23,421 nucleotides of DNA, from positions 1 through 23,421 of IMG/VR virus record IMGVR_UViG_3300020472_000171. One strand, written 5' to 3'. Below, one piece after another: positions 1,522 to 23,421 of this stretch. Source of the DNA: a virus. The position numbers and the translations under genes were made by a program. Position 1 is the stretch's first letter, and each line of letters begins with the position of its first letter. The notes under the pieces are model-generated. The model saw only the letters and a program-made list of their open reading frames with translations. It did not search any database and had not been told where the DNA came from.

Positions 1522-1529
1522 TATTTAGA
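1522..1529 (-). promoter_or_regulatory. Candidate late promoter for the two chaperone-side genes
   Basis: The minus strand reads TCTAAATA, seven of eight matches to the late octamer TATAAATA. It overlaps the TAA stop of the 1308-residue fibre protein and lies 22 bases before the next ATG, in one of the very few intergenic gaps of the operon. It could allow the two downstream genes to be expressed apart from the fibres. The same octamer also occurs inside coding sequence at 6970-6977, so chance is a real possibility. Confidence 0.3.
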
Positions 1530-5451: not shown

Positions 5452-6911
5452 ATCTTGATTAAGTATTCCATTACAATGAATGGTTGTACGGCAGAATCTA
5501 TTGATACAGATGCATCAGCACCAATAGTCATTGTTGTTGATAAATTGTCAGGTTCAATAACAATAGCGTTTGTCTTAACCCTATAGTCATGATCTCCCTT
5601 AACTATATCTATACGATGATTATGTAGGGTAGGATCAGATGTTTGAATTAATTCAGCAGTCTCACTTTGTTCATTTCTAAGATCTAATATTCCTGGTCTA
5701 CCTTGTGTAACAGCTTGATTAGAGTTTAATGGTAATACATCATGTAAACTAAAACCATTACAATCATCAGGAACACCGTTTTCTCCCTGAGCATATGTCA
5801 CATGCATTTTTACATTAGGATCACCAGTATTACCAAGATCATCCTTTCCATATGCAATACAAATTATATTGAAAACTATTTGAAGTTTTGCTCCATTCTC
5901 ATACTGTGCTGGCACACCATTAATACCACCACAATCTCCATCTCCTCTATTACAATTCAATTGATTAGTTTGTGCTGCATCTAATGGATGATATCCTCCA
6001 CTACCAAGCTCATAATAATAAGGATTAAGACAACTGTATCTAAAAATAGTATTGTCTGCACCTTGCTGTATACATCCATTACTATATCCAGTAAAAGCTG
6101 GAATAACTGGCCAGAAGTTACTACTAAACACATAATTAAGTGATTCGTATCCTGGTGTCCATCTATCATTTGCAATACAAGTTTGCTGACCACTAAAAGG
6201 GGCATTACTACCATTAGTGGTAGCTATACCCCATTCATCAATGTTTATTGTTGAAGCAGTTCTACATCCAACAGATCCAGATGGTTTAGGAAGACCATTA
6301 GCACCTTTCTCAGAATTTGAGTGAAGTCTAGTTCTTCTTGTAGTAGAATAGTGAGCATGAGCACCTATTGCATTCTCTTCTACACCTTCAGTCTCTGTAC
6401 GATGAGTATCTCCAGCATATTTCCATCCAGGTTTACCCCTAACATCAATCTCTTGACTAGGTACTGAAATAGATCCACTATACGTTATTGGTACATCAGT
6501 TCCAATAGCAGAAGTTGCTTCAATACCTATACCAGACCTACTAACTTCAGTACCTAGTACATTATCCAATCTTATGTTATTATATACTCCAGCGTTAGCA
6601 CCTGTAGTTGGATTAGGATACTTAGAACCTAAGTCAGGGACAATAAATTGTGAATCTTGTATATTATCATAAAGAGTTCCATCATTATTTCTCTTTAAAA
6701 ATTTACTAGTTGTTCCTATGCCTAATACTGCTGCCAGTCTTGGATAATCAGATGCGTAATATTTTGTACCATCACATTTCAAATATCCAGCTGGTAATTT
6801 ACGAGCATTATTAGCACCATCGGGAGTACCATCATATTCAACTGGCCAAATAATAATTTGCCCTGTTAAATTACCATACTTAGCTCTCTCTTTACTGTAA
6901 AAACTTGCCAT
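5448..6911 (-). CDS. Tail-collar fibre protein
   Basis: This encodes 487 residues. Residues 40-95 form a recognisable tail-collar domain: PAGYLKCDGTKYYASDYPRL, then AAVLG, then QFIVPDLGSKY. Two His-x-His motifs are present, HAH at 185-187 and HNH at 430-432, of the kind that coordinate metal in the intertwined tips of T4 fibres. The protein has about nine cysteines (for example 46, 216, 245, 280, 294, 320, 327, 351, 384), which is many for a fibre. A hydrophobic strand at 343-354 (LQIVFNIICIAY) may pack in the trimer core; it is too short and too internal for a membrane anchor. It ends FIVMEYLIKI, similar to both neighbouring fibres. The start overlaps the preceding stop by one base (TAATG), with AAGG 7 bases upstream. 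Assignment as a short-fibre/tip protein is firm at family level; the receptor is unknown. Confidence 0.9.
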   Translation of the reverse strand: MASFYSKERAKYGNLTGQIIIWPVEYDGTPDGANNARKLPAGYLKCDGTKYYASDYPRLAAVLGIGTTSKFLKRNNDGTLYDNIQDSQFIVPDLGSKYPNPTTGANAGVYNNIRLDNVLGTEVSRSGIGIEATSAIGTDVPITYSGSISVPSQEIDVRGKPGWKYAGDTHRTETEGVEENAIGAHAHYSTTRRTRLHSNSEKGANGLPKPSGSVGCRTASTINIDEWGIATTNGSNAPFSGQQTCIANDRWTPGYESLNYVFSSNFWPVIPAFTGYSNGCIQQGADNTIFRYSCLNPYYYELGSGGYHPLDAAQTNQLNCNRGDGDCGGINGVPAQYENGAKLQIVFNIICIAYGKDDLGNTGDPNVKMHVTYAQGENGVPDDCNGFSLHDVLPLNSNQAVTQGRPGILDLRNEQSETAELIQTSDPTLHNHRIDIVKGDHDYRVKTNAIVIEPDNLSTTMTIGADASVSIDSAVQPFIVMEYLIKI

Positions 6912-8605
6912 TAGTATGCCTTAATGATAAACGTTACTGTGCAATTTGCTTGAGCACTATCTATATTAATATTTAGAGCATCTTCAAGGCTATCTGCTAT
7001 CAAAGAAGAACCATCTGCATTAGTTGCAGTGTGTGATGGTGGTCCTGACATAGATCCCATTGTTTGTTCTATCTCAAAACTTCCATGACTATGACTATCA
7101 AATGCCTCTTTAAGTGGGTTCTTAGTATCATCAAACATACTTAATGATGTAGGATATGTACCAAAGAAGAAATCTAAATTAATAGTACCATTCTGTAATG
7201 CATCTGATGTTGTAGTTACCTTCCATGTATTACCAACCTGCTCTATCTTCTTAACAGTTACACCATCAGCATACCATGCATATCTTTGATAGTTAACAGA
7301 TGTTTGAACACACATCGTTGGTACTACTCTGTCCCACTGATACCAACTGTCAGTACCATTAGTATACTCTCTCCTAATATCAGTATTAGCTGGAAAAGTA
7401 ATTTCAGCACCATTAACAACACAATCAGCAACACGAAATCTACCTGACTTTACTGTTGGTTGTCCATCCAAAGCAATTGGTGTAGTTTCTGGGTCATCTT
7501 CCAAACCATCACTTCTTACAGGTGATCCCACATCATAACCTAAGAAGTTAGATCTACTAGCATTCTTCATAGGTCTTGGGTGCATCCCTGTATGTGCTGG
7601 TTGTTGGTGTGTTTCAACTGGAGTCGTGGCAAGAATCTCATCTGTATTATTAATACCTGATACATTCTGAGTATATGTTGGATTCTCTTGTCCAGATCCT
7701 CTATCAGTACCTCGCCAATTGGCAGCACCAGCAGGAACATTAGCCCAATATGCTTTACCAGTAGAATCTTCTATAAATGACCAAGGTTCATTTGTTCTGG
7801 GTAATGTATTCTCAAAGTTTCCATTACCATAGTATGCTATACTTGCAGCACCTTGATTCCATTCTTGTGGTTCTGCATCTCTATGCTCACAAAATATATT
7901 AGTAGCAGTTAAACATTGATAGTCAGCACTACCACTAGTAGTAACACCACCGTCAGTTCTAAATGTCATAGCACCTACACCACCATCTGCTGCTGTTGGA
8001 ATAGTTCCAGGATGACTATGTGATGGTGTATGGTTTGGACCTAACTTACGAGGTATCATATAAACTGTCTCCAAGAAATCAGGAGAATTTAAACTCATAT
8101 CTTCAAATTTAAAATATAAATTACCAGATATATTTAATGTGAAATCAATATCTGCTGTTGCTTGCCATGATGTTTTAACAATTACATCATTACCCCACCC
8201 AGATATTTGATCTCCAAACTTATTACCATTCTTATCTAAAACAACATTCTTAGCATTAGGTTGTCCCATCTCATACTTAGGATCATCTAAGTAATCCAAT
8301 TCTAAATCAACCATAAGATGATTTGATATATTAGGTAATCCAAATGTTGCTGGAGTATCATAATAAGGGAACTCATAATGATTACCAGCAGCATCACTCA
8401 TGCTACCACCATAAGTATCACCCAATTGTGATGCTAACAATGGATAATCAGATGCAGGTAACATATTTTGTCCCTGTCCCATAACAATCCATCCTTTAGG
8501 TATATTAGATGCAAGGAAACCATTTCCTCCATCTCCACCCCAAGGCATGATCGTGCCAATCTTGGCAGCTCTCATTGTTTTTAGTGAATCGTAATGTATT
8601 GCCAT
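6911..8605 (-). CDS. Tail-collar fibre protein
   Basis: This encodes 564 residues. A tail-collar-like domain spans about 36-93 (IPKGWIVMGQGQNMLPASDY, then PLLASQLGDTYGG, then FGLPNIS). The usual CDG is replaced by GQG, so the collar cysteine is lost. His-x-His motifs occur at 196-198 (in HTPSHSHPG) and 505-507 (FDSHSHGSF), and a further histidine cluster (HQQPAHTGMH) lies at 333-342. The C-terminus CTVTFIIKAY shares its final pattern with the next two fibres. No signal peptide or membrane segment is present, as expected for a virion protein made in the cytoplasm. The gene follows the giant structural gene with a 3-base gap and has GGAG nine bases before its ATG. The family role is a baseplate or fibre tip that contacts the host; which host structure is bound cannot be told. 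Confidence 0.88.
   Translation of the reverse strand: MAIHYDSLKTMRAAKIGTIMPWGGDGGNGFLASNIPKGWIVMGQGQNMLPASDYPLLASQLGDTYGGSMSDAAGNHYEFPYYDTPATFGLPNISNHLMVDLELDYLDDPKYEMGQPNAKNVVLDKNGNKFGDQISGWGNDVIVKTSWQATADIDFTLNISGNLYFKFEDMSLNSPDFLETVYMIPRKLGPNHTPSHSHPGTIPTAADGGVGAMTFRTDGGVTTSGSADYQCLTATNIFCEHRDAEPQEWNQGAASIAYYGNGNFENTLPRTNEPWSFIEDSTGKAYWANVPAGAANWRGTDRGSGQENPTYTQNVSGINNTDEILATTPVETHQQPAHTGMHPRPMKNASRSNFLGYDVGSPVRSDGLEDDPETTPIALDGQPTVKSGRFRVADCVVNGAEITFPANTDIRREYTNGTDSWYQWDRVVPTMCVQTSVNYQRYAWYADGVTVKKIEQVGNTWKVTTTSDALQNGTINLDFFFGTYPTSLSMFDDTKNPLKEAFDSHSHGSFEIEQTMGSMSGPPSHTATNADGSSLIADSLEDALNINIDSAQANCTVTFIIKAY
6919..6923 (-). promoter_or_regulatory. Ribosome site inside upstream gene's last codons
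   Basis: The minus strand reads TAAGG seven bases before the ATG at 6911. These bases are also part of the codons for Ile-Lys-Ala in the C-terminal IIKAY of the preceding collar protein, so the conserved C-terminal codons double as the initiation signal of the next gene. The stop and start share one base (TAATG), which supports this start choice. Confidence 0.6.
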
Positions 8606-8608: not shown

Positions 8609-9130
8609 TTATAACTCCATGAGCCACCAACCTCTTAGTGCAGGTGGAATTGTTTGTGCATTTGCAGAATTTGCAAGGTCTGTATCACCAGCATAAACTA
8701 ATCCAAATGATGCATTACGTGTCTGAATTATTAATTCTCCAGAATCCCACTGAGGAATACTTCCACCAGCACCAGCAGCAATAGATGTACCACTGCTATC
8801 ACCTTGAATTGATACAGCAATATTATTAACCTTAAGTGCTCTAATAATAAGACTTGTATTGTATGTTAGATTACCACTTAGTTCAACGAATCTAATCATA
8901 TCACCTGTCTGTGCATTATCTGGTAAATATAGAACCATATTATTACCACTTGCAGAATTAATCAAATAGTTATTATTAACTTGTAGTGGTGTGGTCTGTG
9001 TTTGACCAACACCAGCTATGTCAAATTCAACATAGGTGAATCTTCTACCACCATTTGCAGTCCAATACTTCTCAATACCAAATGAATCAATAGCATTGTC
9101 CTGATAGATCTTAAAGTCTTTAGCACCTTG
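8609..9130 (-). other. C-terminal globular end of giant protein
   Basis: The last 175 or so residues of the giant protein change from shaft-like repeats to a compact beta-rich segment: NNNYLINSASGNNMVLYLPD, NLTYNTSLIIRALKVNN, WDSGELIIQTRNASFGLVY and finally LRGWWLMEL. The pattern of NNNYxI, LPxxxxxGDxxRxVxxxGNL, SLxIRA, SGELxxQTxxAxFGLVY and GWWLMEL is familiar from C-terminal ends of cyanophage structural proteins. It is probably the exposed tip or the trimerisation cap. Confidence 0.55.
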
Positions 9131-12100
9131 AGTACCACCAACTCCAGCAGATCCAAGATTATCTATATGGAATATAGACTCAGTACCACTCTCAGTTGGG
9201 AAAATTTTACCCTTCTGATAGAATGATTCACCCATCTCAACACTACCAGATAGACCTGCTACCCTAAATGTTCTTACGTTTGAACATACATTATTAATCT
9301 GACAAGACTCTTGGTAAGTATAAAGGTCACCAAAGAAGTTACCATTACCTTTAAGAGTTAATCCATTTGTACCTGTCTTAGGATCAAGTAGAGAACCATC
9401 ACCTGAGTGCTCATCATCATTAGCAATAGACAATACCACAGTTTGACGATCAGAACCATAGATTCTCAAAGCACCACTGTATATTTCTACATCATCATTA
9501 GTAGTTAAATGACCACCACCAAATAGTTTGGTGACATCACCATTAGACTCTCTTATACTCTTAACTAACTTAACACCGTATGCAGTATCAGTAGATCCAT
9601 CAATACTATCAGGTAAGAACCACTCAGTTCCTATTCTAATATACTGTTCATAGTCTTGCTTGTTAGATATTAAATCAGAATCCCTTAACTGTATCTCATA
9701 TCTAAGATCACTGCTGTTAGGTTGTCTTGCTTTAATAGAAGTTAATCCACTAGACCTATCAGTGCGAGTTGCAGGGATAGTATTTAATAGTGTAGTAGTT
9801 CTATCAAACTTATTAATCTTAACTACATCATCACCAGCACTAAATGTAGTTGCTACTGTATCTTCCTTACCTCTACCTCCAAGTGGATAGTTAGCATTGG
9901 TTTGTGTTGGAAGAATTAAGTTGCCACTACCATCTGTATATGGTGCTTGTGTGATCTGAATGATCTCAATATTAGATTGATTAGTAATCATTACAAGATC
10001 ACCAACCACAAATCCATCAATGTTAGAAGCAATTATAATATCAGATGTTGAAGCAACTATAGGATCAGCAACAGTTGTGCTTGGTCCACCAGCAGATTTT
10101 GCTTGTGGATCCTTTCTATAAACATGAACGACATCAACACCAGCAGCATATTGAGACGTTCCAGTACCAAATGCTTCTGCTGTTACAAATACTGTACCAT
10201 GTGTATTACCAATAACTGTGTCACCTGTACAAGTGTCAACCTCAAAGGTCTCAATACCATCACCATTTGTTATAGTTAACTTCTGATTAGTATCAGAGTT
10301 AGTATATGGTGCAGCACATGAACCATTAATAGTAAGAGATCCTTCTGTAGTTAGATCACCACCAATGAATAAATTACCATTGGTTGAATCAACCTCAAAC
10401 ATCACCTCTTCGGCTGTAGTATCACAACCCTTCTTAACAGTAAGTTTCTTAGGAACTTGATTAATTAGAGTCTTAACTTCAATGATCTCACCAGTTGCTC
10501 CTGTAGCATCACGATCAACCATTACATAGTCACCAACCTCTAGTGATCCACCAAACTGTGATAGATACACATCATCTTCTGCTCCTGAGTTATCAATATC
10601 AGCAGTGATCCAAGTTGATTGGTACTGTACCTGACACTTGAATATTGCTGTATCTTCATCATGGAAGTCACCAATGGTAGTCATTGTACCAAATGGTTGT
10701 CTCTCAACTATGATGTAGTATGGAGCCTGATTAACTCTTACTAAAGATTTAATCTTAACAAACTCTGCATACTCACCACTACCATCACTATCAATAATTA
10801 ATATGTCATTGATACCATAGTATAGGTTACCAGCAGCATCATAAGGACTCTTATCAATTGGTAAGTAATACTCAAGACCACTCAATGCTGGTAGATTAGG
10901 AGTAACGTTAGTCCTAGGATTCTGATACTCAGCACCACCCCAAGGATCTCCAGACTCAGTGTTAACTGCGTTGTACTCACCTGTGGGTGTTGTTGATGGG
11001 AATCTTAGAACATCAATGAAATCTACATTCCTTGTAGGAGAGAGTCCACCTTGTTGGGTGTGACTCATTATTGTAGATCCACCCTGTGCTCTATATCCTG
11101 TAAATGTGTAAGAGGAAGAACCACCACACAATATTATATCAGAATTAAATCTAGCACTAGCATCTACAACCAAATTGTTTCTAACATTAGTCTTACCACC
11201 TTGTCCAGCGATTGTTACATCAGAACTATTTTCTGCAAACTTAACTATACTTGTAGCACTATTACCTGAGAGGAATTCAACAGTTTCAGAATTAGATTCA
11301 AACTTAGTAATACTACCTGCACCACTCCTTCTGAATCCAAGTCTAACATCACCAGCAATACCAAATGACTTAGTTCCAATCTCAGTGTATGAATCTGTTT
11401 CAGTACTTAAGAAAGCACCACCAATCTTAATCCTAGACTTATTGATATAAGGTGAAGCACCGTCTGGTGTTGCACCAACGTTAATAGCACTAGAAGAACT
11501 CTGATTACCTATCTTGATATCCTGTGCATCTGTCTGTACATTACCAAGTTCAATATTCTGAGCAGATCCAGCAATAAGAAGTCCCTTACTACCACCTGTT
11601 GTAGTACTCTGAGTACCCTTGAAGTGTGTACCCATTAGGAAGTTGAATGTTCCCGTTGTGATACCCGTACTTACATTAACAGTACCATTATCAAAAGCAT
11701 CAGGCCACCAACCAATTGTTACATCCTGTTCAAATTTAACATCATCAGTGAATCTACCAGTACCAACAACAGTTAATGTACTATCAAGCACATCATTTGT
11801 CTGGGTCATTATTCCAGGAATTGCTACCGATGGCCCCATTGTGTTGATACCAACCATACCTGAGTTGGTTGTAGCAACTCTGAAGGTTGCTGCATTGTCA
11901 GGAGTTGCACTATCACCACCAACCAATAATGCATGATCTTGCTCAGTCAATGCATGAGCAGTACCAGCCTTATAAGTTGTTGTCCAATTAGGAGAAGTCT
12001 TACCACTAATGAATGTAGTACCAACAACATCTAAGTTAGCACGTGGATCTGTTCCATTATCAACAAATGCATCCTTCCATGCATCACCACCAGCACGTTG

Positions 12101-15100
12101 TATTGTGTTAACACCAACCTTAAAGTCACCCCAAACATCTGTATCTGTTCTGATAGACTCTGCACCAAGTACACCTGTCTCTTTCCAAGTACTATCAGAA
12201 TATGATAGTGTTGCATTTGGTTCACTAGACCACAATCTTGGGTCATCATTACCAATATTACCTCTAGCAGCAGTGATTGTTATGTCAACATAATCATTAC
12301 CACCAGCGAATGATCCAGAATTAATTGGCCAACGACCATTAACTGCATTGTCACTCAAACCATCTATCTTAATCGTAGATGCAGCAGTAATAGGTGGTAC
12401 GAATGAACTATTCGTTACACTATTCTTCCACTTAAGTCTGATTGTTTGAGTACCATCAAGATCAAGATGCTGAACCTGAGATGATATATCATTAAAGGAG
12501 TTAGCAAGTATCCATGATACTGAACCAGAAGATCCAACACTCTTACCCTTAAGTAAGATGTCACCTGTCTTAGGTAATGGTCCTTGAGAACCATAACGAA
12601 CTATCTGATCTGTTCCAAATGTTCCATCCTGATCAGGAGTAATGTTTGAACCTACTCCACCAACAGCATGGTTTTGAATCTTATATCCTTGAGCAATACC
12701 ACCTGAACCACGTGGGTTGAATTGGAATACAGAAGCAGCAACCATGTTCTTATTAAGAACAATGTCACCTCTTGTTGCTTGGTTACCTTGCTGATTATCT
12801 CTTCCTAAGAGAGCATCTTCTCCAAGACTAGTATCAATAGTTGATAGAATAGTCAGAGATTGTAATCCAAGATTAGGTTCTACTGATATCTGAACAGGTG
12901 AGTTGAAGTTATTAGTCTTCTTACCATCATCACCACCATTAACAGTAATATTCTCATTGAATGTTACAGGAGTGTCAAATGTAGTAACAAGATTATCAAT
13001 AGGATCATCAGGAGTGAATGAATCAACTAATGTTGCTCTTTCTAAGAATTCCTCTTCACCAGTGATAGCATCAATCTTACGGTTACCAATGTATAGGTCA
13101 CCATTAGAGTTTAATCCTGTGTAGAATACCAGACCACCATTCTCTTTCTTAGATTGTGAATAGAAATCCTGAATAGGTGATAGTAATACTTCCTGTCTAA
13201 TTGGTAGAGCAGTTGAGTAGTTACCTGGACCAAAACCAAGGTATTCAAACGTGTGGTTACCAGCACGAGCGATAGATGGTCGTCTAAGTTCAACATATAG
13301 TCTCTGATCTACTACAACTGTACTAGTACCAGCAATAGGAATCTGACGATCTTCAGAACCAGAGGTAGCATTACCTTCCTCTGCCTTGATTATACTATTC
13401 TGATTAACATCCTTAAAGTTGAAAGGTGTTAATGCTGGAGTTTCAACTAAATCTTCAATACCTTCCCTTGTTAGAGAGTTCTTGAAGTCGTTAACAGTAA
13501 CTAAACCATGAATATAGTTATCAGCAGCAGAGTATGTTATTGGTGGATCAACTAAATTACTATCTAATTGCTTAAACCATACAGGATCATTCTTATAGTT
13601 AAGAGGATATAACTTACTTACTGGCTGGGAGAACTTGAAGTTTCTAAAGTTGCCAAGGTTACCAGCACCAGTAGGATATGGTGATACATTACCACGAATA
13701 GCAGTTAGATAGAAAATACCATCTTGCTGTTCAAAGATACGTTTTTGGATCTCTTGAACATCAAAGATATAGAATGTATCATCAATCTCTCCACCATCCT
13801 TAACTGAATCAATATAGAATTGAACACCATCATCATCCTCAACAATATCACCAGGAGTCAGAGTATATACTGCTGCACCATTTTGTCTGTAATAATTTTC
13901 AGGATATTCCTTCTTAATAAGATCTTTAAGTACCAATGACTTACCAAAGTCAGGATCAGAAAGTAGATCTGCAAATACTGCTCCCTGTGATAATCTGATA
14001 GAATCACTAGCAGAATATTCAATCTTTCCAGATACACCCTTAAGAACTAAATGCCATGTGGTATTATTTGGATCATTAGGATTTGTTGGAAGAGCAGCAT
14101 GAATATAACCATATCCAGCACCTGTGCCAGGATCATTCCATTCAACCTTAGATGCCTGATCATACGTACCACTAGGCATATTTGGATTCTTAATGAAAGA
14201 TCCACCTTGAGGTACAGTTACTTGTACAGTAACAAATGATTCATTCTTAAGAGCATTATTTGATATTCCTAAATCAAATACTGACAACTCTAATTGAGTG
14301 TCACCAGTAACAGAATCAACAAAGTATCTACCAGACTGAATAGTAAAGTCAACATAATTCTGAGTAGTTATGACTTTCTTATAAATTATTCCTGATCCTG
14401 TAAGATCTTTCTTATATGGATCATAAGCATCGTCTATCTTACACTCAGGTGATGCATTCTTAAACTGCGAAGCAGTCCAACCAATGATTTCATTAGTCTG
14501 TGTACTACCACTTACATTATTATAGAACTTAGCTTCAGATACTGAGCCAGAAATTTTCTTCAGAATAATTTTTTGTGAAGGAAGTTTTCTAGTCTCATCT
14601 TTCCTCATCTTAATCGTAAATCCATTTAGAGGATCACGAACAGACTTCAGATACTTAGGTACAACATATCTTAAACGATAGATACGATCATTAGGATCTC
14701 TTTCATCCTCTATTCTTGTATAGTAACTATCATTACTCTTATCCTTACCAGATGCATCATTATAATCAGTATCATGGAATCTCTTCAAGATACTTTGAAC
14801 ATCATAGTCTTGAGTACCAGGAGTAGAAGTATCTTTTACTTGTAAATACCACTTACCTTTCTGAGTAGCAGTAGGAGTATTGTCATACGTAGGATCAAAC
14901 TTTAATGGTGATGTACGTTTGTTACAATATACAGCATAATCTTTATCTTCAGTTATTATAATAGGCTGATTATCACCTAAAGCATTAGCGAAAGTCTTAT
15001 ATAATTTGAATACTTTAGGACTCACATATCTAGCCCAGAAGATTACATCTCCACGTATTCTATTATTAGCATCAGCAACAGTAGGATCATTAGCAAAGTT

Positions 15101-18100
15101 TCCACCAACTTTAGGTAGGTCACCTGTATTTGCTCTAAAGAATATTGGATGACCTTCTGGAACACCAGAGTCTGGCTTATCAAATATATGAGCAACATCT
15201 GTTCTCAATCCACCAGGAACAACACCAACACCTGTATCAATAGAAGGAATATATTTAACTAAATCATATACATTATCAAGAGTAAACTGATAGATATCAA
15301 TTTCTACATCTCTATCAATCGCTTCTACTTCAGCAGAGTGAATGTAGATACCAGCAGCAGCATTCTCTACACTGTTTGCTAACATCAACTGACTCTGATC
15401 AGAACCATCAAATGATGTAGTTATTGAATAATCTTTAGGTTGTGTAAATCTACCTGGAGCAATTACATAGTATGTCTCATTAGGACTAAACCCATTAGGA
15501 AGTCTTACTCTACGCTTATCAACATCAACATATTTTTGGGTTACTGTATCCCAACGTGGACGTGGAACCAAGCGTACAGGAGTTCCAGTCTCTAATTTAT
15601 GTGGATTGCCCTGAGATGGTGGTGCTTGATTTGGATCCCTGAGTGACCATACTGTTGCTCTAGTAGAAAGAGCAGCAGTTGATTGTGCTGGCTCATTCCT
15701 AGGAACAGAACCCAATCCATTTTGAATTATAGTATTGATATTAGCGAAGTACTGACGAACAGCAATTGCTTGTGTAGCACACTCAGGATATGATTCTTCA
15801 CGTCTAGAAGCATTTGCAGCAGAAGCAGAGAATGAAGGATCAATATTTGGTCTCAAGTCTGTATATACACCCTTTTCAGCAGCACCAGAACCACCAGTAC
15901 CAGCTACCGTTGGCCAAGAGAACCACAATATCGTTGATGTTGTGCTAGTATTAGCATTAACAGAAGGACCAAATGATATTCCTTTAGGAGATTCTATCCT
16001 CTCTATAGTATCAAGATATCCACTGTTAGATATGGTACTAGTAATAATACCAAACAGAGTAGTTATTGCAGAAGCAACAGTCTGACATGAACCATTAGAA
16101 ATAGTTCTACTAACACTATCAAGTGATGAACCATCAGAAATAGTATCAGTAAGAATCTTAAAGAGTGAGTTAACTGTTGCTCTAATGTCTTCACATCTTC
16201 CAACAGAAGGAGTTCTTATAATACCACCAACTTGTAATGCTCCTATATCTGCACTAACAAATGTATGAGTACTTGTGTTAGTAGAAGGTGCAGATGATAA
16301 TACATTAACTGTAATAGTATCAGCAGTTACTGCTGTAATAGCATTGTAACTAGTGTATGATGGGTCAGTTGCACGTGGATATGTATGAACTGTGTTATCA
16401 CTGTCCTTAGCACAAGTAAATGATAATGAGTTAGGAGCTATGTTAACAACATCACTTGTTGTGAATCCATGATTACCAATGGTCAATACCATGTCACCTG
16501 TGACAGGATTATAATCAGCATTGGTTACAGTTCTATTAACACCAGCCAAGCTTGATGGATCTGTGATAGCATTAGTTGCAATTGCAGTTAATGTATTGAT
16601 AGCAGATCTTACATCCTCACACTTCTCAGCAGACACTGTGCGTGTTACACTATGAAGTGATGTTGGTGTTGCTATAGTATCAGTTAATATTTGAATTAAT
16701 GTTGTTACAGCAGAAGTTTCATTCTGACACTTAGGATTAGCAGTATCAACTGTTCCTGTGTACATAGACTGAGTTAACTGTGTGTGTCCACCAACAGTAA
16801 CTGCTTCATTTCTAACAACTTCAATGATTAGGTCACGTACTGCATTAAATCCAAATATAGTTTCATTCTCATGACCATCAGCATGACCACCAGAAACATA
16901 TAAGTTACCTGTATCCCATACTCTATCGTTACCACCAAATGCTACGTTATGTGCTACAACTTCTACTACATCCTTAAGATCATCAAGACAATCAGCAGTA
17001 GTATATCCAGCAGCAGGGATGTAATTGGTATACTGTGCAAGCATTCTACCCAATGCAATCTCAGAAATAAAATTCTTATTTGCAAGTATTAAGTTCTTAG
17101 CATCAGCAGCCTTATTATTCTGTGGTGTTGAAGTACTAGTTGTAATGGTGTTATCATATGTCTGAGTTTTACCATGTGATCCAATAATAAGAACTCTTTC
17201 GTTTCTCATTACTTGAACCATTAACTCCTTAGCATCTTCAAATGCCATAAGAGTCTGTTCTTCTTCACCAGCAACATGAGCACCTGTTACATACAAGTTT
17301 GCCATGTCATATACTCTGTCATTTCCACCAAACGCTAAGTTATATCCAATTTCAGTAATGAAATCTTTAATATCATCTCTGCAATCCTGTGGATTGCCTG
17401 TTGGAGGAACGAATCCAGGATTCTGAAGGATCATTCTATCATATGCTTCATATGATATTAAATCAGCATTGGATAGAATAAGATCACGAGCATCACCAAA
17501 CCTACCATGTGGAGTAGCATTCTGTGTAGTATCTCTAGTAATGCTAGTATCTCTAGTCTGAGTAAGTCCATGAGAACCAATAGGAAGTATTTCCTGATCT
17601 CTCATGACCTGAACAGCCATATCTCTAGCATGTTCAAAGACTACATTAGTTTCTAGTTCTTCACCAACAACATGAGCACCTGTCTTAAATGAGTATGCGG
17701 CATCATATGTCTTATCATTACCACCATATGCTACGTTGTCTGCAATAGATTCTAATACATCTCTAACATCATCAACACAATCTACATTATGGTATGCTCT
17801 ACTACCACCAACAGAGAATACTTTATGTACTGAGTTAGAAGCAGAACTTACCCAAGCATGAGTGTAATTACCACCACTAGTTACAGCACCAGCAGTTGCA
17901 CTTATAAATTGATGCTGATAACGATCACCAGGAGCAGCAGCACCAACATCAATAGTGATAGTACCTGACTGTCTCTGAATAGCACCTATTGCACCTCTCT
18001 TAAATGTATGAGCAGTTGCTGGCTTCTGATGTACACAGAGATTAGCAGCAGTTACAAATGTATGAGCAGATAGAGGTAGATATTCAACAGCATTAGCGAT

Positions 18101-21100
18101 TGAACTTACAAATGTATGCTTGTAGTGATGACCTGTAGTAATTGAATTATCAAGAGAATCTACATATACATGAGCACCTGCTGTATTATCATTAGCCTGT
18201 CCAACATTAACTGTAATTGTTGTAGATGTTGTAGAAATAATATCAATATACTTTTGATAGAATGGATCAGTTGTACGTGGATAAGCATGTAGTGTTGTAT
18301 TACTATCCTTAGCACAAGTAAATTTCAATCCACCTTCTTTTATTTGTATACTATCACCAACCTGTAAGGAGTGACTACCAATAGTAATCTCCATAACACC
18401 AGTAGCAGGGTCATATGCTGCATTGGATGGTTTGTAATCAGTTATAGTTGGAGTACCAACATTTATTGTTACTGTTCCTGTCTGCTTCTTAATACCATTC
18501 TTAGTAGCAGAAAGGAAGACATGGTTACCTGTATAACTAGACAGACCAACATTAACTCTAAATGTATTAGCAGTAGTCTCTCTAATTTGTAACCACTTTC
18601 CACTTGGATAATCAAATCCTGCACGTGGATAAGCAGATCCTGCCGAAGCTTTACCAACATTAATTGTTATGGTATCATTAGTAATAGCCCAAACCTCTAG
18701 AGGTGTAGCATGTGCTGGATCTGTTGTACGAGGATATGTGTGGACAGTAGCGTTGTTATCTTTATCACATGTGAAGCTTAAAGCATTAGCACCAAAGGTA
18801 ACTGTACTATTTGATTTCTGAAGACCACTAGGAGTAGCACTTGCAAATATATGAGCATGGTCACCACCACTAGTGATAGCATTAGATGCAGCAAACCCAG
18901 GTTTCCATCTGTGAAGTGAATCATCTGTAGTAGTACCAACATTCAAGGTTATTGTAGTTGCTGTTACTGAAGTAATATTAACTGCTGTATCATAAGATGG
19001 ATCAGTTGCTCTTGGATATAAATGATCAGTAGCAAAGTTATCCTTATCACATTGGAATGGTAAGGATCCATTAGTAATCTTAACACTAGTATCAGGAGTT
19101 AAATTATGAGCTCCAATAGTAAGTGTCATTAATCCTGTTGAAGGATTATAAGAACCATCAGTAGGAGTATGCTGTACTAAAGGAGATGTTCCAACATTAA
19201 TATCAAATGTGTCAGTCTGTACATTAGAAATTGTTATCCACTTTCCACTAATAGGATCACTAGGACGTGGGTATTGCTTACTAACAGTATTGCCATCCAT
19301 TGCACACTTCATGCTGATAGAATTATCAGCAAGTTTCACCTTATCTCCATTGGTGAATCCATGACTAGCAACAGTAAGTGTCATCACACCTGTTGATGCT
19401 GTATAAGATGCATTAGTTACAGTAACTGATGAAGGAGCTTGAAGTCCATGTGCAGCACTGGTAATAACCATAACACCAGTAGCAGGGTCATAAGTTGCAT
19501 CAGTTACACTCTTATTACTATTGAATGCATTGGCAGCAGTACCACCAACCCAACTGTGAACACCAGAACCACCTAAAGAACATGCTAATGTTAATGATCC
19601 ATCAGCAATCTGAATATGATCTCCACCATTAGTAACAGCACCAGTAACTGCTGAAACAAAAGTATGTGGATACTGATCAGCAGAAGCAGCTACCTCTACT
19701 TGTACTGTAAATGTACTTTGAGTTACATTACTAACAACTATATCTTTATTACTTACAGGATCACTTGATCTTGGATAAGTATGCTCACTAACATTATTAT
19801 CTTTATCACATGTAAATTTGAGTGTATTATCCTTAATTCTAACGTACTCACCATCAGATAATCCGTGGTTAGGAACATTAAGTGTTAGTACCCCAGTAGC
19901 AGGATCATATGCTGTCAGACCAACAATAGGTGTAAACTCTTGAGGTCCAGCAAATCCATGACTAGGAACGGTAACTGTTAAATCACCAGTAGAAGAATCA
20001 TATACTACATCAGTTGCTGTATGTTCTGATTGTCCTACTTCTGTAATTGATAGTGACTTACCTGCATATGGATCAACACCTGGACGTGGGTAACTATGGT
20101 TTGATACATTACCATCTTTATCACATGTAAATGTGAGTGAATTATCCTTCAAGATAATATCAGAACCAACAGCAAGTCCATGTTGACCCAATGTTAGAGT
20201 CATATCACCAGTCATATAATTATAGTCTGCTGATGTAGGTTGGAAGTACTTGTTATCACCTGCCATACCAACATCAACTATAACAGTATGCTGTCCATCA
20301 CCACCAATAATAGGAAGTGATCTACCAGCAGCTTTGTCTACATTAGGACGTGGATATGTTTGTGGAACTTGATTACCATCCATTGTACATGTAAATGATA
20401 ATGCATTATCATCAATTACAAGACTTGTACCCACACCCCAACCAACTGTACTTGCAAAGGTTAGTGTAAGATGACCACTAGCAGGATCATATGCTGCATT
20501 AGATGGAGTAAATGACTCATTAGCACCAGCAGCTTCAACATTAACCTTAAATGTATCAACTGTGGTATTAGATACAGTCAACCAATCTCCACTTACAGGA
20601 TCGCTTGATCTTGGATATGAATGCTCACTAGCATTACCATCCATTGCACATGTGAAGGTCAATCCATTATCAGAAATTTTTATTCTATCTCCGTTAACAA
20701 ACCCGTGACCAGGAACAGTTAGTTCTAAAATACCAGTAGCAGGGTCGTAGTCACCACCCTCTGCTGTATGATATGATGCACCAACTTTCTTAATCTTAAG
20801 AGCACTCTGGTATGCAGGGTCAGTAGAACGTGGATAGCTTGTAGCAGCATTGAAATTGTCCTTAGCACACTTGAATATTAATGATTGATCTGCTAGTCTA
20901 ACACTGCTTCCAGTTCTAAGATTATGTGAACCAATGGTGAGTGTCATATCACCAGTATTAGGATCATATTGAGCAGCAGAAACATCGTGACTGACGTTTA
21001 TAGTCTTGCCAACATTAATTGTAATTGTATCAGCAGTCTTTGCTGAGACAGGAAGAAGAGCAGTAGCAGCAGGATCACTTACACGAGGATAAGCATGTGT

Positions 21101-23421
21101 TGTGGACTGTCCATCCATATCACACTTAAAGTTGATAGAACCATAATCAAGTCTAACTTGATCAGCAGCTCTCTTCATTCCTTGAGGAGCAGCAGTTACA
21201 AATGTGTGAGTGTAATCACCACCTGTAATTACAGCACCAGCAAGAGCACTAACAAATGTATGTGGATCTGTATTTGTTGATGGTTGTGTAGCTAAAACTT
21301 GTATGGTAATAGTATCAGCAGTAACAGACTCAATCTGAATTGATGTATCATGGAATGGGTCTGTAGATCTAGGATATGATTTCTCAGCAGCAGTACCAGT
21401 AGCACCACCAAATCCACAACTAAACTTCAATGATTCTTCTAGAAGTTTAATACTTGTACCAGCAGTTAGTCCATGATTACCAATCGTTAAGGTCATTAGA
21501 CCTGTTGTTGGATTATAATCAGCAGCAGTAGGAGTGAATGATACTGTAGGTGACTCACCAACATGAACATCAAAGGTATTTGTAGTTACATTACTAACCT
21601 CTAACCACTTACCAGATACAGGATCAGTTGCTCTAGGATAAGTATGCTGAGTAGCATTATTATCCATGTCACACGTTAATGTGATTGAATCATCAGCAAA
21701 CTTAACTTTCTCACCAGCAGCAAACCCATGAGCATTCATGGTTACAGTCATCTTACCTGATGTTGCATTAAATGCTGCACCACCAATAGTATGAACATCT
21801 GCTGCATCTAATCCATGACCAACAATTGTTAGTTCAAGTTCACCAGTAGTAGCATTATAAACTGCCCCTGTAGGTGTGAACTGCTCTGTTGAGGATGAGA
21901 GAACCATTCTCTCAACTGCCTCATGTGCAATAATTTCTTTATTAGCAAGGATTAAATTACGTGCGTCACCATTTCTATCATTTACTAACTCTGGTGCTTC
22001 CTGAGTAATAGTAGCATCCTTATTCTGACTTAATCCATGAGCACCATAAACAAATACATCCTCACTACGCATGATTTGAACAGACATGTCCTTGGCATAT
22101 TCAATAGCACGTAAAGTTTCAGGTCTCTTCTGTGCAATATATGCTACCCTACCACTATCATAATGGTCAGCAGCATCCCAAACTTCATGGTTACCACCAT
22201 ACTTAGTGTTCTCTGCAATAGATTCTACAATATCAACTAAATCATCTTTACAATCTTGGGCAGTATATCCTGTTGGTGAAGTATATCCTGGATAATCCAA
22301 GACCATACGATCAAATGCTTCTGCTGCAATAAAGATCTTATTAGTTAATAGTTGATCTCCAGCATCACCAAAACGATCACCAACTACTTTTTTCTCTTCA
22401 GCAGTTGCTTGTTGTCCTATCTCAATTGTACTAGAGTCAACAATTCTCTTAACGTAAGTACCAGCTGGAATAACAGTATTATTTGGTGTTGCAGTAGATT
22501 TTAATTCATTAGCTTCAAAATCTGCTGGATCATAGTCAGCAACTAACATACCTGGAACAATACCAGAGCTATCACTAACATTAACAAGAGAATTATTAGC
22601 AGTTGTCTCTACATTAGTACGCTTGTAAGTAAAGTTACGAAGTGCTGCAATAGCAAGATCTCTAGCATAATCATATCCTTCCAGAGTCTCTGTTAATTCC
22701 CCAGTAATATAAGAAAGATTGTTACCAACGTAATATGATTCACCAGCTTGAATAGTATTGATGTTTCCACCAAGTCTTAAATCTTGTATTGTTGCATCAA
22801 GAAGGTATCCAATATCTCTACGACATTTCTCAATAGTAATACCATTCTTAATTAAAAGACTTGGATACTTAGATGTAATGAATCCATATGCTTCATAAGC
22901 AATAAATTCTTTATTATCTTCAATCCTATTAGCAGCATCCTGATCTTTATTACTTACTACTACATTACCACCAGGATTAAGAATCTTAGGAGCAGCAGCA
23001 AACCTCTGGAATCCTGTTGGATTTAATGTTGCTTTATGAATACTATCATTTAATCCTGCACCAGGAGTTAACTTAACAAATATTTGTTCATCTGACTTAG
23101 CACCAATAGTATATCCACCAATAGTTGCTGCTGGTCTATCATTGGGATCATAACCTTCATCATCACCAAGATATATTGCAGTATGATTAGCAGGATCATT
23201 AGATGCTTGTATATCTAAAGTATAATATGAATTTCTCTTTATAAACTCAGGAGAATCAGAAACAATCTCTGGTGGTATGATAGCATCAATATATCCACCC
23301 TTATCTTGGTTAAATGCGTATCCTTTATGTCCTTTAGCATGTAACGATGTATTACCAAAGTTACTGTTAGAGTTGGTGATACTCATATCACCACCACTTT
23401 CCATTAGGAAGTGATCAGCAA
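8609..23421 (-). CDS. Giant multi-domain phage structural/fibre protein, 5'-partial
   Basis: The frame runs from the right edge to the TAA at 8611-8609. The first ATG in view is at 23404, giving 4931 residues (over 500 kDa), but the frame stays open for five more codons (Ala-Asp-His-Phe-Leu) to the edge, and no ribosome site precedes that ATG. A second ATG at 23386 begins MSITNSNSNFGN, a beta-helix-like stretch. The real N-terminus is therefore probably outside. Numbering from 23404: helical GGN modules at about 159-502 and 1875-2216; a beta-module array at 503-1874; a Cys repeat array from about 2226 to 2475; an unrecognised region to about 3370; RAGNHTFEYLGFGPGNYS near 3380; a repetitive shaft to about 4800; and a C-terminal globular end closing in GWWLMEL. 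These last motifs are familiar from T4-like cyanophage structural proteins. It is likely a tail fibre or tail-surface protein; the precise part is not known. Confidence 0.85.
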   Translation of the reverse strand, partial: ADHFLMESGGDMSITNSNSNFGNTSLHAKGHKGYAFNQDKGGYIDAIIPPEIVSDSPEFIKRNSYYTLDIQASNDPANHTAIYLGDDEGYDPNDRPAATIGGYTIGAKSDEQIFVKLTPGAGLNDSIHKATLNPTGFQRFAAAPKILNPGGNVVVSNKDQDAANRIEDNKEFIAYEAYGFITSKYPSLLIKNGITIEKCRRDIGYLLDATIQDLRLGGNINTIQAGESYYVGNNLSYITGELTETLEGYDYARDLAIAALRNFTYKRTNVETTANNSLVNVSDSSGIVPGMLVADYDPADFEANELKSTATPNNTVIPAGTYVKRIVDSSTIEIGQQATAEEKKVVGDRFGDAGDQLLTNKIFIAAEAFDRMVLDYPGYTSPTGYTAQDCKDDLVDIVESIAENTKYGGNHEVWDAADHYDSGRVAYIAQKRPETLRAIEYAKDMSVQIMRSEDVFVYGAHGLSQNKDATITQEAPELVNDRNGDARNLILANKEIIAHEAVERMVLSSSTEQFTPTGAVYNATTGELELTIVGHGLDAADVHTIGGAAFNATSGKMTVTMNAHGFAAGEKVKFADDSITLTCDMDNNATQHTYPRATDPVSGKWLEVSNVTTNTFDVHVGESPTVSFTPTAADYNPTTGLMTLTIGNHGLTAGTSIKLLEESLKFSCGFGGATGTAAEKSYPRSTDPFHDTSIQIESVTADTITIQVLATQPSTNTDPHTFVSALAGAVITGGDYTHTFVTAAPQGMKRAADQVRLDYGSINFKCDMDGQSTTHAYPRVSDPAATALLPVSAKTADTITINVGKTINVSHDVSAAQYDPNTGDMTLTIGSHNLRTGSSVRLADQSLIFKCAKDNFNAATSYPRSTDPAYQSALKIKKVGASYHTAEGGDYDPATGILELTVPGHGFVNGDRIKISDNGLTFTCAMDGNASEHSYPRSSDPVSGDWLTVSNTTVDTFKVNVEAAGANESFTPSNAAYDPASGHLTLTFASTVGWGVGTSLVIDDNALSFTCTMDGNQVPQTYPRPNVDKAAGRSLPIIGGDGQHTVIVDVGMAGDNKYFQPTSADYNYMTGDMTLTLGQHGLAVGSDIILKDNSLTFTCDKDGNVSNHSYPRPGVDPYAGKSLSITEVGQSEHTATDVVYDSSTGDLTVTVPSHGFAGPQEFTPIVGLTAYDPATGVLTLNVPNHGLSDGEYVRIKDNTLKFTCDKDNNVSEHTYPRSSDPVSNKDIVVSNVTQSTFTVQVEVAASADQYPHTFVSAVTGAVTNGGDHIQIADGSLTLACSLGGSGVHSWVGGTAANAFNSNKSVTDATYDPATGVMVITSAAHGLQAPSSVTVTNASYTASTGVMTLTVASHGFTNGDKVKLADNSISMKCAMDGNTVSKQYPRPSDPISGKWITISNVQTDTFDINVGTSPLVQHTPTDGSYNPSTGLMTLTIGAHNLTPDTSVKITNGSLPFQCDKDNFATDHLYPRATDPSYDTAVNITSVTATTITLNVGTTTDDSLHRWKPGFAASNAITSGGDHAHIFASATPSGLQKSNSTVTFGANALSFTCDKDNNATVHTYPRTTDPAHATPLEVWAITNDTITINVGKASAGSAYPRAGFDYPSGKWLQIRETTANTFRVNVGLSSYTGNHVFLSATKNGIKKQTGTVTINVGTPTITDYKPSNAAYDPATGVMEITIGSHSLQVGDSIQIKEGGLKFTCAKDSNTTLHAYPRTTDPFYQKYIDIISTTSTTITVNVGQANDNTAGAHVYVDSLDNSITTGHHYKHTFVSSIANAVEYLPLSAHTFVTAANLCVHQKPATAHTFKRGAIGAIQRQSGTITIDVGAAAPGDRYQHQFISATAGAVTSGGNYTHAWVSSASNSVHKVFSVGGSRAYHNVDCVDDVRDVLESIADNVAYGGNDKTYDAAYSFKTGAHVVGEELETNVVFEHARDMAVQVMRDQEILPIGSHGLTQTRDTSITRDTTQNATPHGRFGDARDLILSNADLISYEAYDRMILQNPGFVPPTGNPQDCRDDIKDFITEIGYNLAFGGNDRVYDMANLYVTGAHVAGEEEQTLMAFEDAKELMVQVMRNERVLIIGSHGKTQTYDNTITTSTSTPQNNKAADAKNLILANKNFISEIALGRMLAQYTNYIPAAGYTTADCLDDLKDVVEVVAHNVAFGGNDRVWDTGNLYVSGGHADGHENETIFGFNAVRDLIIEVVRNEAVTVGGHTQLTQSMYTGTVDTANPKCQNETSAVTTLIQILTDTIATPTSLHSVTRTVSAEKCEDVRSAINTLTAIATNAITDPSSLAGVNRTVTNADYNPVTGDMVLTIGNHGFTTSDVVNIAPNSLSFTCAKDSDNTVHTYPRATDPSYTSYNAITAVTADTITVNVLSSAPSTNTSTHTFVSADIGALQVGGIIRTPSVGRCEDIRATVNSLFKILTDTISDGSSLDSVSRTISNGSCQTVASAITTLFGIITSTISNSGYLDTIERIESPKGISFGPSVNANTSTTSTILWFSWPTVAGTGGSGAAEKGVYTDLRPNIDPSFSASAANASRREESYPECATQAIAVRQYFANINTIIQNGLGSVPRNEPAQSTAALSTRATVWSLRDPNQAPPSQGNPHKLETGTPVRLVPRPRWDTVTQKYVDVDKRRVRLPNGFSPNETYYVIAPGRFTQPKDYSITTSFDGSDQSQLMLANSVENAAAGIYIHSAEVEAIDRDVEIDIYQFTLDNVYDLVKYIPSIDTGVGVVPGGLRTDVAHIFDKPDSGVPEGHPIFFRANTGDLPKVGGNFANDPTVADANNRIRGDVIFWARYVSPKVFKLYKTFANALGDNQPIIITEDKDYAVYCNKRTSPLKFDPTYDNTPTATQKGKWYLQVKDTSTPGTQDYDVQSILKRFHDTDYNDASGKDKSNDSYYTRIEDERDPNDRIYRLRYVVPKYLKSVRDPLNGFTIKMRKDETRKLPSQKIILKKISGSVSEAKFYNNVSGSTQTNEIIGWTASQFKNASPECKIDDAYDPYKKDLTGSGIIYKKVITTQNYVDFTIQSGRYFVDSVTGDTQLELSVFDLGISNNALKNESFVTVQVTVPQGGSFIKNPNMPSGTYDQASKVEWNDPGTGAGYGYIHAALPTNPNDPNNTTWHLVLKGVSGKIEYSASDSIRLSQGAVFADLLSDPDFGKSLVLKDLIKKEYPENYYRQNGAAVYTLTPGDIVEDDDGVQFYIDSVKDGGEIDDTFYIFDVQEIQKRIFEQQDGIFYLTAIRGNVSPYPTGAGNLGNFRNFKFSQPVSKLYPLNYKNDPVWFKQLDSNLVDPPITYSAADNYIHGLVTVNDFKNSLTREGIEDLVETPALTPFNFKDVNQNSIIKAEEGNATSGSEDRQIPIAGTSTVVVDQRLYVELRRPSIARAGNHTFEYLGFGPGNYSTALPIRQEVLLSPIQDFYSQSKKENGGLVFYTGLNSNGDLYIGNRKIDAITGEEEFLERATLVDSFTPDDPIDNLVTTFDTPVTFNENITVNGGDDGKKTNNFNSPVQISVEPNLGLQSLTILSTIDTSLGEDALLGRDNQQGNQATRGDIVLNKNMVAASVFQFNPRGSGGIAQGYKIQNHAVGGVGSNITPDQDGTFGTDQIVRYGSQGPLPKTGDILLKGKSVGSSGSVSWILANSFNDISSQVQHLDLDGTQTIRLKWKNSVTNSSFVPPITAASTIKIDGLSDNAVNGRWPINSGSFAGGNDYVDITITAARGNIGNDDPRLWSSEPNATLSYSDSTWKETGVLGAESIRTDTDVWGDFKVGVNTIQRAGGDAWKDAFVDNGTDPRANLDVVGTTFISGKTSPNWTTTYKAGTAHALTEQDHALLVGGDSATPDNAATFRVATTNSGMVGINTMGPSVAIPGIMTQTNDVLDSTLTVVGTGRFTDDVKFEQDVTIGWWPDAFDNGTVNVSTGITTGTFNFLMGTHFKGTQSTTTGGSKGLLIAGSAQNIELGNVQTDAQDIKIGNQSSSSAINVGATPDGASPYINKSRIKIGGAFLSTETDSYTEIGTKSFGIAGDVRLGFRRSGAGSITKFESNSETVEFLSGNSATSIVKFAENSSDVTIAGQGGKTNVRNNLVVDASARFNSDIILCGGSSSYTFTGYRAQGGSTIMSHTQQGGLSPTRNVDFIDVLRFPSTTPTGEYNAVNTESGDPWGGAEYQNPRTNVTPNLPALSGLEYYLPIDKSPYDAAGNLYYGINDILIIDSDGSGEYAEFVKIKSLVRVNQAPYYIIVERQPFGTMTTIGDFHDEDTAIFKCQVQYQSTWITADIDNSGAEDDVYLSQFGGSLEVGDYVMVDRDATGATGEIIEVKTLINQVPKKLTVKKGCDTTAEEVMFEVDSTNGNLFIGGDLTTEGSLTINGSCAAPYTNSDTNQKLTITNGDGIETFEVDTCTGDTVIGNTHGTVFVTAEAFGTGTSQYAAGVDVVHVYRKDPQAKSAGGPSTTVADPIVASTSDIIIASNIDGFVVGDLVMITNQSNIEIIQITQAPYTDGSGNLILPTQTNANYPLGGRGKEDTVATTFSAGDDVVKINKFDRTTTLLNTIPATRTDRSSGLTSIKARQPNSSDLRYEIQLRDSDLISNKQDYEQYIRIGTEWFLPDSIDGSTDTAYGVKLVKSIRESNGDVTKLFGGGHLTTNDDVEIYSGALRIYGSDRQTVVLSIANDDEHSGDGSLLDPKTGTNGLTLKGNGNFFGDLYTYQESCQINNVCSNVRTFRVAGLSGSVEMGESFYQKGKIFPTESGTESIFHIDNLGSAGVGGTQGAKDFKIYQDNAIDSFGIEKYWTANGGRRFTYVEFDIAGVGQTQTTPLQVNNNYLINSASGNNMVLYLPDNAQTGDMIRFVELSGNLTYNTSLIIRALKVNNIAVSIQGDSSGTSIAAGAGGSIPQWDSGELIIQTRNASFGLVYAGDTDLANSANAQTIPPALRGWWLMEL
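8615..8618 (-). promoter_or_regulatory. Shine-Dalgarno in the end of the giant gene
   Basis: GGAG on the minus strand lies nine bases before the ATG at 8605 and is formed by the last Met-Glu codons of the giant protein (MEL, stop). It is the clearest ribosome binding site in the window and supports the chosen start of the 564-residue collar protein. Confidence 0.65.
9800..10820 (-). repeat. Three degenerate GD-V beta modules in the shaft
   Basis: Three segments of the giant protein resemble each other. They lie at about 10810-10640 (DILIIDSDGSGEYAEFVKIK then LVRVNQAPYYIIVERQPFGT), about 10575-10410 (EVGDYVMVDRDATGATGEII then EVKTLINQVPKKLTVKKGC) and about 10045-9810 (VVGDLVMITNQSNIEIIQIT then NYPLGGRGKEDTVAT). 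The shared plan is a GDxVxI strand, an E-xx-xI strand, then a V-xR-xxxGT-like strand. They are interspersed with paired cysteines and short G-L-x-I-G-G-D shaft repeats (for example NGNLFIGGDLTTEGSLTING). Confidence 0.5.
13200..13290 (-). other. Conserved fibre motif in giant protein
   Basis: The stretch RRPSIARAGNHTFEYLGF, followed by GPGNYSTALP, lies near residues 3375-3401 of the giant protein. I recognise it as a strongly conserved block in structural proteins of T4-like cyanophages and related marine phages. It comes just before the shaft region and is the best family anchor in the giant protein. The function of the block is not established. Confidence 0.6.
15980..16735 (-). repeat. 36-residue cysteine repeats with a 106-residue insert
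   Basis: Four repeats follow the pattern C-xx(V/I)-x(S/A)-(A/V)-(I/V)-xxL-xxI-xxxxI-(S/T)-xx-S-L-xx-V-xRT. The leading cysteine codons start at 16729, 16621, 16195 and 16087. Repeats 1-2 and 3-4 are each exactly 108 bases (36 residues) apart. Repeats 2-3 are 426 bases (142 residues) apart, because one complete beta module (YNPVTGDMVLTIGNHGF to HTFVSADIGAL, with YPR at 16381) sits in the linker after VNRTV. The repeats are predicted to be helical hairpins; their function is unknown. Confidence 0.8.
16760..17782 (-). repeat. Second half of helical module 3, modules 4 and 5
   Basis: At 17782 the missing second half of helical module 3 begins (DCVDDVRDVLESIADNVAYGG) and ends with GSHGLTQTRDTSITRD near 17545. 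Module 4 (about 17510-17150: LILSNADLISYEAYDRMIL, CRDDIKDFITEIGYNLAFGG) and module 5 (about 17130-16760: LILANKNFISEIALGRML, CLDDLKDVVEVVAHNVAFGG) follow in full. In intact modules the linker between the two halves is only 13-15 residues. Confidence 0.75.
17783..21898 (-). repeat. Array of YPR/FTC beta modules
   Basis: About 1372 residues are built from a recurring unit. First comes YDPxTGxMTLTIxxHGL, then GxxVKIxDxSLxFTCxMDxN, then HxYPRxxDPxxxxxLxIxxV, then TxxTIxVNVG, and in many copies HTFVSAxxGAVxxGG. The tyrosine of YPR is encoded at 21640, 21376, 21091, 20836, 20617, 20356, 20092, 19777, 19273, 19018, 18736, 18631 and 18283, so most spacings are 73-105 residues with a mode near 85-88. 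One unit near 19500-19620 has lost YPR (HSWVGG instead), and one near 18631 is only 35 residues after its neighbour. The left end (18180-17830) has only HTFVSA-type submodules. The protein fold is unknown to me; the alternating strands suggest a beta-rich rod. Confidence 0.85.
21899..22940 (-). repeat. Helical GGN modules 1, 2 and first half of 3
   Basis: The giant protein has a helical module of about 115-125 residues. It begins with LxNKxFIAxEAxxRMVL, continues after a linker with DC-xDD-(L/V)-xD-(I/V), then YGGN, and ends with a helix carrying AxDMxVQxMRxE and the motif GxHGLxQ. Copy 1 (about 22940-22640) is divergent (CRRDIGYLLDATIQDLRLGG). Copy 2 (about 22382-22000) is complete (CKDDLVDIVESIAENTKYGG). 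Copy 3 begins at about 21990 (LILANKEIIAHEAVERMVL) and stops abruptly at 21899, where the beta array begins; its second half is found 4.1 kb away. Confidence 0.75.

What the first reader, a model, noticed from the sequence alone, without database searches (positions are those of the whole stretch)
15980..16735. The same beta module is inserted a second time, with exact length arithmetic
The 36-residue cysteine repeats keep a spacing of exactly 108 bases except between repeats 2 and 3, where it is 426 bases. The extra 318 bases (106 residues) are one beta module with YNPVTGDM, FTCAKD, HTYPR and HTFVSA. Flanks of the insert both read RT (VNRTV and IIRTP), as if the linker was duplicated. Two independent insertions into unrelated helical repeats imply that the beta module behaves as a transferable cassette.
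Basis: partly seen in the sequence, partly recalled or inferred. Interest (0 to 1): 0.8.

Follow-up and report, generated by a model that had tools for sequence, protein, structure and literature searches.

The report
Optional beta-barrel insert in cyanophage tail fibre
A small barrel-shaped protein domain sits like an optional bead between the coils of a giant tail-fibre protein of a marine cyanobacterial virus; close relatives carry none, one or several at exactly the same joint, so these viruses have repeatedly gained or lost whole beads there.

Summary
In a 4,936-aa tail-fibre protein of a marine cyanomyovirus (same gene order as Synechococcus phage S-WAM2), four 36-aa Cys repeats are spaced 108, 426 and 108 bases. 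The extra 318 bases (about 16226-16543, minus strand) encode one beta module of the family that forms the array at 18.1-21.9 kb. Three separate occupied/empty pairs have 87-95% identical flanking DNA and differ by a clean in-frame 306-315 nt indel; the flank tree needs 8-9 gains or losses. So it is not a fixed domain. Two parts of the reading fail. The module was not copied recently from the window's own array (DNA identity at most 62%). The 'RT...RT' linker is not a duplication: the left RT aligns with the module's own first strand. First-position modules at this joint cluster in the tree, suggesting a resident lineage repeatedly lost and regained by recombination. AlphaFold gives a confident beta domain most like phage endosialidase beta-barrel and E1 FCCH domains. 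A glycan-binding or spacer role is inferred. Same kind of thing as phage Ig-like and BACON domains.

The parts
8609..23419 (-). Giant tail-fibre ORF, 4,936 aa, open at the contig edge (5' end of the gene probably missing)
   Evidence: PHROG 4527 'short tail fiber', E=0; same gene order as S-WAM2 gp224-gp220
16226..16543 (-). Inserted beta module (318 nt, 106 aa, about residues 2293-2398) in the linker between Cys repeats 2 and 3
   Evidence: AF2 pLDDT 93.7 for 16214-16534
16301..16531 (-). Core of the module (79-position profile, 96.8 bits)
16226..16267 (-). Cap of the module, HTFVSADIGALQVG(G), supplying the last two strands of the model
   Evidence: the cap ends every C-site run counted, 18/18
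16622..16735 (-). Cys repeat 1 (Cys2231)
16523..16624 (-). Cys repeat 2 (Cys2267); its 3' linker is the insertion joint
16097..16201 (-). Cys repeat 3 (Cys2409)
15989..16093 (-). Cys repeat 4 (Cys2445), the 'SNGxCQ' terminal unit
18104..21880 (-). Main array of the same beta module (16 profile hits, some partial) at a junction of the ~130-aa helical repeats
16640..17785 (-). Three ~130-aa helical repeats (H120) between the beta array and the Cys repeats
21863..23035 (-). H120 helical repeats before the beta array (four profile hits, some partial)

Best explanation
This is an optional beta-barrel-like domain in the giant tail fibre of a marine cyanomyovirus, held in the linker between two helical Cys repeats. 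Shown: it belongs to a cyanophage-wide module family, it folds (predicted) as a self-contained beta domain, and at this joint relatives carry none, one or several copies, with repeated gain or loss. Inferred: one ancestral module settled at this joint, and since then empty and occupied (and multi-module) forms have been swapped between phages by homologous recombination in the conserved helical flanks. Each unit is in frame and structurally self-contained, so the swap does not disturb the fibre. Inferred function: the module extends the fibre and adds a surface-binding site, probably for glycans, so copy number tunes reach and avidity on the host surface.
For: 60 distinct homologous sites: 40 empty, 17 with one module, three with two or more. 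Three separate occupied/empty pairs with 87-95% flank DNA identity and in-frame indels of 306-315 nt: L017 vs L011/L013, L015 vs L104, L091/L106 vs L113/L117 (DNA alignments of L017 vs L011-L013 and L015 vs L009/L010). L014 differs from L011 by 633 further nt within 96-98% identical flanks. The flank tree needs 9 changes (8 forced by supported branches) and one clade of occupied sites is rejected, p 6e-7. First-position C-site modules cluster (3 changes vs 10.3 shuffled, 0 of 500 as low) and one origin is not rejected, p 0.24, while the second modules of L102 and L103 fall among array modules. AF2 of the module alone: pLDDT 93.7, nine strands. VIA Z 7.0 to E1 FCCH and 6.9 to phi92 endosialidase; weak Pfam matches to the same two families, each in 4 of 100 members. 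Among phage records, relatives occur only in Synechococcus, Prochlorococcus, cyanophage or marine virus records, 329 of 329. A published cyanophage evolution experiment inferred recombination between stretches of one genome in a tail-fibre-type gene (PMC6224464).
Against: No donor with near-identical module DNA at another site was found; the best cross-site identity is 74%, so no transfer has been caught in the act. The sliding-window scan shows only a mild identity dip beside the L017 joint, with no donor identified. The order of gain and loss is not polarised, as the tree is unrooted. Module trees rest on about 80 columns and most deep forks are weak. Glycan binding rests on fold resemblance with Z under 8 and is untested.
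Confidence: 0.7

Rival explanations
1. Ancient fixed domain: the module has always been part of this Cys-repeat array.
For: First-position C-site modules cluster across distant phages and one origin is not rejected.
Against: 40 of 60 homologous sites are empty, including relatives with 87-95% flank DNA identity; 8-9 gains or losses are needed.
Confidence: 0.03
2. Recent copy from the window's own array at 18-22 kb by intragenic duplication or gene conversion.
For: Same family; one shared 18-nt exact word; C-site modules were seen only in proteins that also carry an H-site array: 15 of 15 scorable occupied vs 16 of 31 empty.
Against: DNA identity to the window's array modules is at most 62%, within the array-to-array range of up to 64.5%; other phages' modules are closer; one clade of the window's modules is rejected, p 7e-6. 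The H-site association is not significant on independent pairs.
Confidence: 0.04
3. Pure spacer: the modules only lengthen or stiffen the fibre and bind nothing; copy number drifts by recombination.
For: Copy number varies widely (0 to 27 profile hits at the H site, 0 to 4 at the C site), and repeats recombine easily.
Against: Y8, C41, Y52, P53, R54 and D57 are invariant over 100 diverse modules, which could be fold or function; the nearest folds include a domain of phage endosialidases, which from general knowledge contributes to polysialic-acid binding.
Confidence: 0.3
4. Active mobile cassette with its own transfer machinery or target-site duplication, as the RT...RT flanks suggested.
For: RT on both sides in the window and in L011-L014.
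Against: The left RT aligns with the module's own first strand ([F/H/Y]T in array modules); other occupied sites have KKHT, SKAS or VVRD there; the DNA shared by the two flanks is AGAACT, also found at the linker before repeat 4. All the copies counted lie in frame inside structural ORFs; no recombinase was seen in the window.
Confidence: 0.03

Closest known systems
Ig-like and BACON domains of phage tail proteins (crAssphage BACON tandem repeats, PMC6949934)
   Same: Small beta domains carried singly or in tandem by tail proteins, with duplication and horizontal transfer of separate domains (abstract)
   Different: Different sequence and, as far as tested, different fold; here units sit in the linkers of helical repeats and at one joint form a resident lineage with empty alleles in close relatives
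Beta-barrel domain of phage endosialidases (Pfam PF12195 End_beta_barrel; PDB 4hiz, 1v0e, 3ju4)
   Same: Closest phage fold: Z 6.9 and 6.6, about 80 residues aligned; weak Pfam match in 4 of 100 modules
   Different: The window module itself matches no Pfam family; no endosialidase propeller was recognised in this protein by Pfam; sequence identity 15-18%
E1 FCCH domain (Pfam PF16190; PDB 4p22)
   Same: Top VIA match, Z 7.0 over 76 residues; weak Pfam match in 4 of 100 modules
   Different: Domain of eukaryotic ubiquitin-activating enzymes; a fold resemblance, not a functional one
Giant 'short tail fiber' proteins of cultured cyanomyoviruses (S-WAM2, S-CAM4, ACG-2014i, Sf-CH1b)
   Same: Same kind of protein and gene order; beta modules also occur in them, in S-WAM2 between Cys repeats 1 and 2 and in the others inside an H repeat
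   Different: None shows the module at the repeat 2/3 joint of the window; in S-CAM4 and ACG-2014i the Cys array is empty

Membership tests
Cyanomyovirus giant tail-fibre protein (PHROG 4527) | Profile match over the C-terminal half | tested here: met
   E=0, 2,623 bits, residues 2440-4936
Cyanomyovirus giant tail-fibre protein (PHROG 4527) | Gene neighbourhood: short tail fiber, structural proteins and tail assembly chaperone downstream | tested here: met
   Window ORFs 6911-8605, 5448-6911, 1525-5451 and 588-1499 follow S-WAM2 gp223-gp220
End_beta_barrel (PF12195) | Pfam profile match of the module | tested here: not met
   The window module matches no family at E <= 0.1; 4 of 100 relatives match, best E 0.0028
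End_beta_barrel (PF12195) | Same fold | tested here: inconclusive
   VIA Z 6.9 and 6.6, below 8; Foldseek E 0.04, probability 0.99
End_beta_barrel (PF12195) | Binding of polysialic acid or another glycan | not testable with these tools
   Needs a binding assay
E1_FCCH (PF16190) | Pfam profile match of the module | tested here: not met
   No match in the window module; 4 of 100 relatives, best E 0.012
E1_FCCH (PF16190) | Same fold | tested here: inconclusive
   Z 7.0, rmsd 2.5, 76 residues
Mobile or tandem beta domains of phage tail proteins (kind of Ig-like/BACON) | Several copies in a tail-associated protein | tested here: met
   16 array hits plus the insert
Mobile or tandem beta domains of phage tail proteins (kind of Ig-like/BACON) | Presence/absence or copy-number differences between close relatives | tested here: met
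Mobile or tandem beta domains of phage tail proteins (kind of Ig-like/BACON) | Same module in different proteins | tested here: met
   Also in proteins annotated gp7, baseplate wedge, of P-SSM4, P-SSM2 and P-HM2
BACON domain (PF13004) | Pfam match | tested here: not met
   2 of 100 modules at best E 0.051; none in the window module

The most novel reading that the evidence does not exclude
The repeat 2/3 joint is a standing exchange slot: cyanophage populations keep empty, single and multi-module alleles in circulation and swap them by recombination in the helical flanks as a way of changing which hosts they attach to.
Probability: 0.25. Interest if true: 0.65.

Novelty: new member of a known kind. 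Interest (0 to 1): 0.45.

Why it matters
It gives a clean natural series (0, 1, several domains at one joint, flanks nearly identical) in a widespread group of marine phages. That makes it possible to ask directly what a single added fibre domain does to host attachment. It also points to a widespread cyanophage module that Pfam does not name and links it, tentatively, to a known small beta-barrel fold.

Tried and rejected
Recent copying from the own array: rejected. RT linker duplication: rejected. Fixed ancient domain: rejected. Homology of the two helical repeats: HHalign probability only 9-30%, left open. Solved-structure search by sequence: no convincing relative (best 7c5x, E 0.0025, carbonic anhydrase, over 37 columns). 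Folding the whole Cys region: mean pLDDT 65.7, with the helical repeats mostly under 60, so their fold and the insert's orientation are not known. C-site occupancy linked to an H-site array: raw Fisher p 0.0007 but only 2 of 7 independent pairs informative, not significant. Recombination donor for L017: none identified. The cap statistic (57/66 terminal vs 45/246 internal) is partly circular, as directly adjoining modules leave no room for a cap.

Full report
What the window is. The window is a 23,421-base virus record. One minus-strand ORF of 4,936 aa, open at the contig edge, fills 8609-23419. It matches PHROG 4527 'short tail fiber'. The downstream genes match short tail fiber, structural and tail assembly chaperone families in the same order as Synechococcus phage S-WAM2 gp224-gp220, Kyanoviridae. 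All 329 phage records with a relative of the region are Synechococcus, Prochlorococcus, cyanophage or marine virus records. It is most likely a T4-like marine cyanomyovirus.

The observation. The Cys repeats lie at residues 2231, 2267, 2409 and 2445, so the spacing is 108, 426 and 108 bases. The extra 318 bases are one beta module. Against empty-site homologues the insert falls between 'PSSLA' and 'IIRTPSVG', about 16226-16543. The module scores 96.8 bits with the module profile (the profile's seeds were array modules plus this one).

Relatives. Two scans of viral contigs and profiles for the three units (H120, C36, B) gave 60 distinct homologous sites: 40 empty, 17 with one module, L102 and L103 with two, and L014 with four profile hits, some of them partial. 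Occupied and empty forms recur side by side. L017 (empty) against L013 and L011, L015 against L104, and L091/L106 against L113/L117 have flank DNA 87-95% identical and differ by 306-315 nt in frame; L014 has 633 nt more than L011 within 96-98% identical flanks (DNA alignments). On a tree of the flanks occupancy changes at least 8-9 times, and one clade of occupied sites is rejected, p 6e-7. Three empty contigs of one lineage (L091, L092, L106) carry different sample numbers, which argues against assembly error there; L015 and L017 are single contigs.

Where the module came from. In the window it is no closer to its own array (DNA at most 62%) than array modules are to each other (up to 64.5%). 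Its best protein matches are in other phages, 60-64%. Holding the window's sampled modules together as one clade is rejected, p 7e-6. Between sites no DNA match exceeds 74%. So recent exchange is excluded for the window. First-position modules at this joint cluster (3 changes against 10.3 shuffled) and a single origin is not rejected (p 0.24; p 0.64 in a larger quick tree). The second modules of L102 and L103 fall among array modules; the extra module of L014 is on a long branch and is not resolved. The best reading is one old insertion, then repeated loss, regain and enlargement by recombination between phages. The direction of each change is not known because the tree is unrooted. A cyanophage evolution experiment proposed at least two recombination events between stretches of one genome in a YadA-domain structural gene (PMC6224464), which makes the mechanism plausible.

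The RT flanks. In the alignment the left RT sits where array modules have FT, HT or YT, that is in the module's own first strand; other occupied sites have KKHT, SKAS or VVRD there. The shared DNA is AGAACT, also present at the linker before repeat 4. There is no sign of a target duplication.

Other joints. Module runs lie mostly at junctions of the H120 repeat (44 entries) and between C36 repeats (26 entries; some loci are the same contig), with a few inside H120. In cultured S-WAM2 modules sit between Cys repeats 1 and 2; in S-CAM4, ACG-2014i and Sf-CH1b they sit inside an H repeat. Proteins annotated gp7 in Prochlorococcus phages carry them too.

Fold and function. The module alone is predicted with pLDDT 93.7 as nine strands. 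The nearest solved folds are the E1 FCCH domain (Z 7.0) and phage endosialidases (Z 6.9 and 6.6), all under Z 8; weak Pfam hits point to the same two families. The best BFVD matches that carry names are cyanophage structural proteins. Y8, C41, Y52, P53, R54 and D57 are invariant over 100 modules. From general knowledge the endosialidase barrel helps bind polysialic acid; glycan binding here is an inference. All C-site runs counted (18/18) end in an HTFV-type cap, which supplies the last two strands of the model. The Cys-repeat region itself is predicted poorly (mean pLDDT 65.7), so how the module is displayed is unknown.

Verdict. Observation confirmed; cassette reading partly supported. It belongs with Ig-like and BACON domains as a kind of modular tail domain (PMC6949934) and adds a family with an unusually clear occupied/empty series.

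Noticed in passing
L102, L103, L014 (C-site): Multi-module inserts at the joint: the second modules of L102 and L103 fall among array-type modules in the tree, unlike the first ones.
   Followed up: partly
window 18104-21880; all loci: An HTFV(S/R)A...GG cap follows most run-ending modules (57/66) and few internal ones (45/246), as if it closes a run; partly circular because adjoining modules leave no room.
   Followed up: partly
L070-L072: An additional C36 unit upstream followed by three H120 repeats (CHHHCCCC), a different array layout.
   Followed up: no
L018-L020, L080, L082, L085, L086, L108: These phages have one extra Cys repeat in the array and no beta module.
   Followed up: no
window 16412-16414 (Cys of the module's FTC motif): A single cysteine invariant in 100 of 100 modules, with YPR and a following Asp also invariant; role unknown.
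   Followed up: no
window 1525-5451: 1,308-aa structural protein with a long glycine-rich stretch, PHROG 30655.
   Followed up: no
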